This document shows, one piece after another, positions 51,116 to 52,385 of a stretch of 64,000 nucleotides of DNA; the first letter of the stretch is position 1, and each line of letters begins with the position of its first letter. The notes under the pieces were generated by a model. The model was not told where the DNA came from and did not search any database. It saw only the letters and a program-made list of their open reading frames with translations. The position numbers and the translations under genes were made by a program. The stretch covers positions 1 to 64,000 of the forward strand of contig NZ_VUNN01000009.1 in NCBI RefSeq assembly GCF_009695635.1, read 5' to 3'. The DNA comes from Bullifex porci. GTDB taxonomy: Bacteria > Spirochaetota > Spirochaetia > Sphaerochaetales > Sphaerochaetaceae.

Positions 51116-51152
51116 GCTCATGAGTAAATTAAGAACTCATGAGTCTTATTTA
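51116..51152 (+). terminator. Terminator of the small gene
   Basis: The repeat CTCATGAGT / ACTCATGAG (51117-51125 and 51135-51143) forms a nine-pair stem with a nine-base loop followed by CTTATTTATTC. The same hairpin lies downstream of the convergent Rpn gene. Confidence 0.7.
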
Positions 51153-51293
51153 TTCTACTCCAAGAATCTATTACTTAGAAAAGTAAGCCTTCATATTCTT
51201 TTCAAACTTTTCAACAGTAATATTAAGCTTATTTGCAGCTATTTCCTTTGTAATTATTCCATCACGAGTTAATTCATATAGAGTTTCGCACTT

Positions 51294-52103
51294 TCATTCG
51301 CGTTTACCTTCGCGTTTCCCCTCACGCTTACCTTCACGTTTTCCTTCTCGCTTTCCCTCGAGTAGACCCTCAAGCTTACCATCATTTTTTATATCTTCAA
51401 TTGCCTTACACATGTTATAACCTCCATCATTTGGAATATCTACCTTCATTATTGTTTCTAATAACTTAGCTGTTCTATAATCAAGGTTCTTAAAGGCCTC
51501 TTCACTATTAATATAACTTAAAAGCGCATTTTTATCTCCTTGGTTTTTAATAATATTTAATACTAGCTTTAATGGCTTACTTATTTTATTTAACTTTTCG
51601 CCCTTTAGCTCATGAGGATCTAATACATAGTATCCTGAGTTTACTAATGGATATCCAAAGGCATTTATCGCTTCATCTGATAAAAGCTTTCTTAAATCAG
51701 TTGCATTACTCCATTTCCTATCTAGCATATTAAACACTATGATATACACTGGCTTTAGCTTCTCACCCTCCTTGATAATAGCTATTTGATTATCATAGAT
51801 TAATAGTGATGCAATGCCTGCTCTTATTACCATATGCTTATCACTATATGCTTGTGACTCAAGACCAATGATTGCATATACATTTTCATCACTCTCCTTT
51901 ACTGTTGAATCATAAAGATTATCTACTAATACCTCTAAGGATTTATTCTTAGTAAACACTGTAGAATTAACAGGGTCTATTTCTCTTAGGTCTTCAGCTT
52001 TTATTCTTTCTTCTCCATTAAATAGAGATAGATTAACAAACTCTGAAAAGATCTTAGGATCAGAGAAAAAATTCTTTGCTGCGCGATCTTTTTCCTTTGC
52101 CAT
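51294..52103 (-). CDS. Rpn-family PD-(D/E)XK nuclease, tail interrupted by TGA
   Basis: A 269-residue member of the Rpn (recombination-promoting nuclease, formerly PDDEXK transposase) family. The nuclease core is VYAIIGLESQAYSDKHMVIRAGIASLL, where GLESQ supplies the E-x-Q/K part and the upstream acidic residue lies in the preceding helix. The C-terminus is five tandem GKRE units of 12 bp with many synonymous differences, then TGA at 51296-51294. The same frame stays open for 40 more codons to TAA at 51171, encoding a helical domain (TLYELTRDGIITKEIAANKLNI). The TGA sits where a sixth unit would begin, so it looks like a GGA-to-TGA change. The protein may therefore be truncated. Confidence 0.82.
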   Translation of the reverse strand: MAKEKDRAAKNFFSDPKIFSEFVNLSLFNGEERIKAEDLREIDPVNSTVFTKNKSLEVLVDNLYDSTVKESDENVYAIIGLESQAYSDKHMVIRAGIASLLIYDNQIAIIKEGEKLKPVYIIVFNMLDRKWSNATDLRKLLSDEAINAFGYPLVNSGYYVLDPHELKGEKLNKISKPLKLVLNIIKNQGDKNALLSYINSEEAFKNLDYRTAKLLETIMKVDIPNDGGYNMCKAIEDIKNDGKLEGLLEGKREGKREGKREGKREGKRE

Positions 52104-52385
52104 CGCTGCCTCCTTTTTTTGGTTTCTATTAATAATTCAAATAAAAGTTAAAAAAATCGTAATAAAAATGAGGTAAAAACATGAAATTCCAAGCCTTAAG
52201 ATTTATTATTTCTTTAAGATAAAATGAATTAAAAATTTTTTATTATTTTTTTAGGAGGTACAAAAAATCCTTCCTGGAAAACCAAAGAAGGATAAAGAAT
52301 ATTTTAATCTAGAATTTGAATTTCTTAGCACTTTTCTTAAAAATCATTTCCCTATTTTATTTAATTTCATACGTGTCTAGTTTTA
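52104..52385. other. Intergenic stretch, no gene supported
   Basis: AT-rich DNA between the divergent Rpn and aldehyde dehydrogenase genes (the total gap is 317 bases). AGGAGGT at about 52253-52259 followed by an inverted repeat ATCCTTC / GAAGGAT (near 52267-52293) resembles a ribosome binding site and hairpin, but no start codon or sustained frame follows. A 38-codon frame ending at 52380 lacks a start. Possibly a decayed gene. Confidence 0.45.

What the first reader, a model, noticed from the sequence alone, without database searches (positions are those of the whole stretch)
51171..51360. Rpn nuclease tail: GKRE repeats ended by an in-frame TGA with 40 more codons open
Five 12-bp units encode GKRE with varied codons. 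A sixth unit reads TGA-AAG-TGC-GAA, that is GKRE with GGA to TGA and CGC to TGC, and the frame continues for 40 codons as a sensible helical domain. TGA is a normal stop elsewhere here, so this looks like a fresh nonsense change, or a switch that sheds the C-terminal domain.
Basis: seen in the sequence. Interest (0 to 1): 0.5.

Follow-up and report, generated by a model that had tools for sequence, protein, structure and literature searches.

The report
Nonsense mutation in Rpn toxin–antitoxin gene
One of several near-identical DNA-cutting defence genes in a bacterium carries a premature stop codon that removes the tail of both the nuclease and the small inhibitor encoded inside it; intact copies remain elsewhere in the same genome, so this looks like ordinary gene decay in a known kind of defence system.

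Summary
A minus-strand Rpn-family nuclease (52103-51294, 269 aa) ends at an in-frame TGA (51296-51294) just after its GKRE repeats, and 40 homologous codons stay open to a TAA (51173-51171). Seven other loci of the same genome carry the same tail: four full-length genes (94-97% identical), two partial antitoxin-only copies with an open tail, and one broken partial copy. None has this TGA, so it is a private nonsense change or a sequence error. A conserved GGAGG-N7-ATG at 51425-51411 starts the putative small antitoxin RpnS, as described in E. coli and C. difficile (Zhong et al. 2023). The stop therefore truncates nuclease and antitoxin alike. By analogy with published E. coli mutants, this should kill the antitoxin and weaken the nuclease without fully abolishing it. 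I found no sign of recoding, readthrough or a switch. A side result is that the tail appears to be exchanged between otherwise diverged rpn paralogues. Most likely this is a decaying allele in a churning rpn family. It is ordinary, though useful as a natural experiment.

The parts
51294..52103 (-). Rpn-family nuclease gene as it stands (RpnL truncated to 269 aa), stop TGA
   Evidence: ORF; PF04754 E=2.7e-7, 30.8 bits over the 21-bit cut-off; residues D6, D61, E82, Q84 align with RpnA D11, D63, E82, Q84
52109..52113 (-). Shine-Dalgarno-like GGAGG of the long product
   Evidence: sequence
51421..51425 (-). GGAGG before the internal start of the putative antitoxin RpnS
   Evidence: sequence; same motif in all clade A and B copies, partial copies included
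51297..51413 (-). putative RpnS as it stands: 39 codons from internal ATG 51413-51411 to the premature stop
   Evidence: analogy with E. coli and C. difficile RpnS (Zhong et al.)
51297..51380 (-). four-residue repeat array GKLE GLLE (GKRE)x5
51294..51296 (-). premature in-frame TGA, absent from all paralogues
51171..51293 (-). orphaned 3' part: 40 codons + TAA, the RpnS tail domain, with no usual in-frame start codon except one ATG 7 codons before the TAA
   Evidence: three predicted helices at RpnS residues 42-50, 56-62, 67-78

Best explanation
This is one of five near-identical rpn genes in a genome rich in rpn copies. It is built as a gene within a gene: a PD-(D/E)XK-type DNase (RpnL) whose C-terminal part is also made separately from an internal start (RpnS) and acts as its antitoxin. 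In this copy a single nonsense change at the end of the four-residue repeat array truncates both products just before the folded tail. The most likely effect is a dead RpnS and a weakened but perhaps not wholly dead RpnL, that is, a decaying or hypomorphic allele tolerated because the nuclease is crippled together with its inhibitor and because intact paralogues exist. Shown: the stop, the homology of the tail, the absence of the stop from paralogues, and the conserved internal start. Inferred: translation of RpnS, loss of antitoxin activity, residual nuclease activity, and decay as the fate.
For: Four intact full-length paralogues at 94-97% protein identity and the intact partial copies L008 and L010 carry the tail in frame. 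Of the 5 intact copies of this type that have the last repeat unit (L002, L004, L005, L008, L010), 5 of 5 have a glycine codon where the window has TGA; L003 lacks that unit. The internal start GGAGG-N7-ATG is the same in all clade A and B copies, and the block YNMCKAIED around it is invariant in the window, L023, L024 and L025, which are only 25-28% identical overall. TGA ends 13 of 41 long ORFs in the window, this one included; no tRNA-Sec match passes Rfam's cut-off in the genome; RNA after the stop does not fold better than shuffles (z 0.25 and 0.06). Published analogues: a stop at codon 25 of RpnAS abolishes its repressive effect, and an RpnD lacking its last 45 residues is weaker but not dead. 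Decay is common around it: IS110 and frameshift in L014/L017, a DDE transposase in L011/L018, lost N-domains in L008 and L010.
Against: No reads or second strain were available, so an assembly or base-call error remains possible. The N-terminal part on this branch is not visibly degraded (5 nonsynonymous to 10 synonymous private changes), which fits either a very recent stop or a truncated protein that still serves a purpose. The window protein scores far below the NCBIfam Rpn model (11.8 against 52.1 bits). I found no test of activity for this Rpn subfamily.
Confidence: 0.72

Rival explanations
1. Sequencing or assembly error: the genome is a 67-contig draft with five near-identical copies, so one wrong base or a collapsed copy could create the TGA.
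For: Draft genome of 67 contigs, 96.7% complete, 2.3% contamination; a single base separates the codon from the GGA found in L002 and L008.
Against: The window's array is unlike any other copy (8 units with their own codons), so it is not a simple chimera of another copy.
Confidence: 0.13
2. A functional split: the stop makes a truncated nuclease that needs no fused tail, and its antitoxin is supplied in trans by separate RpnS copies such as L008, which shares the Cys unit.
For: Antitoxin-only copies with the same internal start exist in the genome (L008, L010, and L012 behind L007); separate rpnS genes are known in E. coli; the N-domain is still constrained.
Against: L008 has 6 repeat units against 8 in the window (by eye), and a one-repeat mismatch abolished inhibition in E. 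coli RpnC; the truncated RpnL lacks much of the region proposed for oligomerisation with RpnS.
Confidence: 0.09
3. A reversible contingency state: exchange with intact paralogues or contraction of the repeat array turns the tail on and off.
For: The tail appears to be exchanged between paralogues and repeat number differs between copies.
Against: No other copy carries the stop; units differ at synonymous sites, so simple slippage is not recent; 12-bp units never shift the frame; no population data.
Confidence: 0.04
4. TGA is read through or recoded (Trp, Sec or other), so the full protein is made.
For: The tail is open and similar to intact copies.
Against: TGA is an ordinary stop here, no tRNA-Sec over the cut-off, no structure after the stop, no stop inside any of the 43 matches in 17 other genomes of the family.
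Confidence: 0.02

Closest known systems
RpnL/RpnS intragenic toxin-antitoxin systems (E. coli RpnA-E, RpnP2; C. difficile Rpn; Zhong et al. 2023, PMC10327210, whole text read)
   Same: PD-(D/E)XK-type residues, internal start with Shine-Dalgarno, four-residue repeats just after the RpnS start, repeat number variable, separate rpnS copies behind some genes
   Different: This copy has a natural stop between repeats and folded tail; here the tail is the well conserved, apparently exchanged part while N-domains differ strongly between subfamilies; activity untested
Engineered RpnAS E25-stop and RpnBS D29-stop (same paper)
   Same: Premature stop at or after the repeat insertion region of RpnS
   Different: Made in the laboratory in an overexpressed RpnS only; here natural and in both products
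RpnD lacking its last 45 residues (Kingston et al. 2017, PMC5350276, passages and section 17 read)
   Same: Nuclease without its variable tail, a similar number of residues lost (40 codons plus the stop position here)
   Different: E. coli RpnD; deletion, not a stop; RpnS was not yet known

Membership tests
Rpn / YhgA-like nuclease (PF04754) | Match to Transposase_31 over the gathering score | tested here: met
   30.8 bits against 21. The six-frame genome search with the same model listed only two C34 places, so it missed this one
Rpn / YhgA-like nuclease (PF04754) | PD-(D/E)XK residues equivalent to RpnA D11, D63, E82, Q84 | tested here: met
   D6, D61, E82, Q84 in the alignment with RpnA of K-12
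NCBIfam TIGR01784 Rpn subfamily | Score over the curated cut-off | tested here: not met
   11.8 bits against 52.1
RpnLS intragenic toxin-antitoxin | Internal start with Shine-Dalgarno before the variable tail | tested here: met
   GGAGG-N7-ATG at 51425-51411, conserved in all clade A and B copies; translation itself not tested
RpnLS intragenic toxin-antitoxin | Four-residue repeats beginning 8-20 residues after the RpnS start | tested here: met
   array begins at residue 12
RpnLS intragenic toxin-antitoxin | Complete C-terminal helical bundle in both products | tested here: not met
   TGA at RpnS codon 40, before all three confident helices of the tail; the tail is present in the four intact full-length paralogues
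RpnLS intragenic toxin-antitoxin | Structural match to RpnAS (PDB 7TH0) | tested here: inconclusive
   single-sequence model, no PDB match at E<=0.001
RpnLS intragenic toxin-antitoxin | RpnL toxic, RpnS neutralises it | not testable with these tools
   needs expression
Anti-phage defence gene (PADLOC) | Match to a PADLOC-DB model | tested here: not met
   0 families at E<=1

The most novel reading that the evidence does not exclude
The rpn family of this genome is a shuffling system: tails (antitoxin bundles) are exchanged between diverged nuclease genes through the repeat region, partial copies serve as donors and as antitoxins in trans, and the stop-bearing copy is a nuclease-only state that exchange can create or undo.
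Probability: 0.07. Interest if true: 0.7.

Novelty: new member of a known kind. Interest (0 to 1): 0.3.

Why it matters
RpnLS systems must keep toxin and antitoxin matched, because one DNA stretch encodes parts of both. A natural stop that removes the shared part shows how such a gene can fail without obvious harm to the cell, and gives a natural test of whether a tail-less Rpn nuclease is still toxic. The tail exchange between diverged paralogues bears on the open question (raised by Zhong et al.) of how the repeats and extra rpnS copies arise. As a finding in itself it is a single decayed gene.

Tried and rejected
Recoding and readthrough: TGA is a normal stop, no tRNA-Sec over the cut-off, no hairpin; rejected. 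Re-initiation behind the stop: the only in-frame ATG is 7 codons before the TAA, and the out-of-frame ATG overlapping the stop gives 7 codons (by eye); rejected. Close relatives elsewhere: none in viral contigs, 2 plasmid records at under 30% identity, 3 genome-contig loci at 22-27%, 3 of 16 genomes of the genus including its own, so strains could not be compared. Constraint on synonymous sites as the cause of the similar tails: rejected, because within clade A the tail changes faster than the N-domain (0.175 against 0.106). Structure of the truncated 269-residue protein: pLDDT 40.6, not used. Structure search with the RpnS model and sequence search of the PDB found nothing of use. PF04754 search of the own genome under-reports this subfamily.

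Full report
What is there. On the minus strand an ORF of 269 aa runs from 52103 to a TGA at 51296-51294. It matches Pfam Transposase_31/YhgA-like over the gathering score, and four residues at which changes inactivate E. coli RpnA (D11A, D63A, E82A, Q84K; Kingston et al. 2017, passages) align with D6, D61, E82 and Q84 here. After GKLE-GLLE come five GKRE units, the TGA, then AAG-TGC-GAA and the rest of 40 open codons to TAA.

Is the tail real? Openness alone is weak evidence: 130 of 2527 TGA trinucleotides in the window are followed by 40 or more open codons. Homology settles it. The own genome (67 contigs) gave 18 matching places to the read-through protein. Four full-length genes (L002-L005; 94-97% identical, L005 in two pieces) have the tail in frame. 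So do the partial copies L008 and L010; a third, L014, is frameshifted. More distant genes L006 and L007 (51-52% identical over the whole protein) also have it. In the family search, 56 matches to the small protein were listed, 13 in the own genome and 43 in 17 other genomes, out of 139 genomes searched; stops inside were reported in 2 of 56, both in the own genome (the window and the frameshifted C34 copy). The TGA is therefore private to this copy. The Cys codon next to it is not: L008 has Cys too.

Seven bases after a GGAGG (51425-51421) lies an in-frame ATG (51413-51411). The same GGAGG-N7-ATG stands in every clade A and B copy, including partial copies that have lost the nuclease domain. 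In distant homologues only 25-28% identical overall, the residues around this ATG (YNMCKAIED) are invariant in all 4 sequences compared, and most of the distant loci matched by motif also have a GGAG- or GAGG-like stretch before the ATG (L025 and the second L032 copy are weaker cases). This is the layout of RpnL/RpnS systems, in which the internal product RpnS neutralises the nuclease RpnL (Zhong et al. 2023 preprint, whole text). [quoted passage not shown] here at residue 12. The stop is codon 40 of RpnS. In a single-sequence model of the read-through RpnS, the three confident helices (42-50, 56-62, 67-78; pLDDT about 85-88) all lie behind the stop, while the repeats are low-confidence.

Likely effect. 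A stop at codon 25 of RpnAS or 29 of RpnBS abolished repression in E. coli, and RpnD without its last 45 residues was weaker but not dead. By analogy, the window's RpnS should be inactive and its RpnL hypomorphic. Both statements are inference. The simplest fate is decay, and decay is common among the rpn copies here: an IS110-type insertion and frameshift (L014/L017), a DDE transposase inserted with an 80-bp direct duplication (L011/L018), and N-domain losses (L008, L010). Against old decay, the N-terminal part of the window copy has 5 nonsynonymous and 10 synonymous private codon changes, the most of the five clade A genes but not a relaxed pattern, so the stop is probably recent, or the truncated protein still matters.

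Alternatives tested. TGA ends 13 of 41 ORFs of at least 200 aa in the window. tRNA-Sec: 8 weak matches in the genome, none over the cut-off, while 5 of 14 controls pass. RNA behind the stop folds no better than shuffles. No related gene was found in viral contigs; other collections gave only distant relatives. A base error cannot be excluded.

Side result. Between clade A (L001-L005) and clade B (L006, L007), the nuclease part has mean synonymous difference 0.613 and the 36-codon tail 0.271, while within clade A the tail (0.175) exceeds the nuclease part (0.106). The tail value is below the minimum of all 198 sliding 36-codon windows of the nuclease part in 10 of 10 A-B pairs. Of 5000 random draws of 36 nuclease codons, 4 were as low, and none had as low a between/within ratio. 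The pairs are not independent. I read this as exchange of tails between diverged rpn genes. I found no paper joining Rpn with gene conversion of tails (search: one paper, unrelated by its listing), but most subscription papers are not in that library.

Verdict. Confirmed observation; a private nonsense allele in a known kind of gene; interest modest.

Noticed in passing
G000:C34:97300-100500 (L047), also L011/L018: A DDE-transposase element of about 2 kb sits inside an rpn gene, flanked by an exact 80-bp direct duplication. From memory, such long duplications are typical of IS1634-like elements; not tested.
   Followed up: partly
L014/L017 (G000:C34:72500-74400): An rpn remnant lacking the nuclease domain is interrupted by an IS110-family transposase and is frameshifted in RpnS.
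   Followed up: partly
L007/L012, L009, L016, L023, L032, L041: Two RpnS-like starts lie in tandem with different repeat numbers; in L007/L012, L009, L023 and L032 the second lies behind a longer rpn frame, as known for E. coli rpnE and rpnC. The second copy in L016 is frameshifted.
   Followed up: partly
L008 positions 117-1268: A TnpB-like (OrfB_IS605) gene lies directly upstream of the partial antitoxin-only copy.
   Followed up: no
L001-L007, about 100 bases before the start codon: The region upstream of the start is more alike between clades A and B than the nuclease part that follows it.
   Followed up: partly
51116-51144: The ten-base palindrome ACTCATGAGT and a near copy of it (ACTCATGAGC) lie just behind the gene; no terminator-like site was found in the scan.
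   Followed up: no
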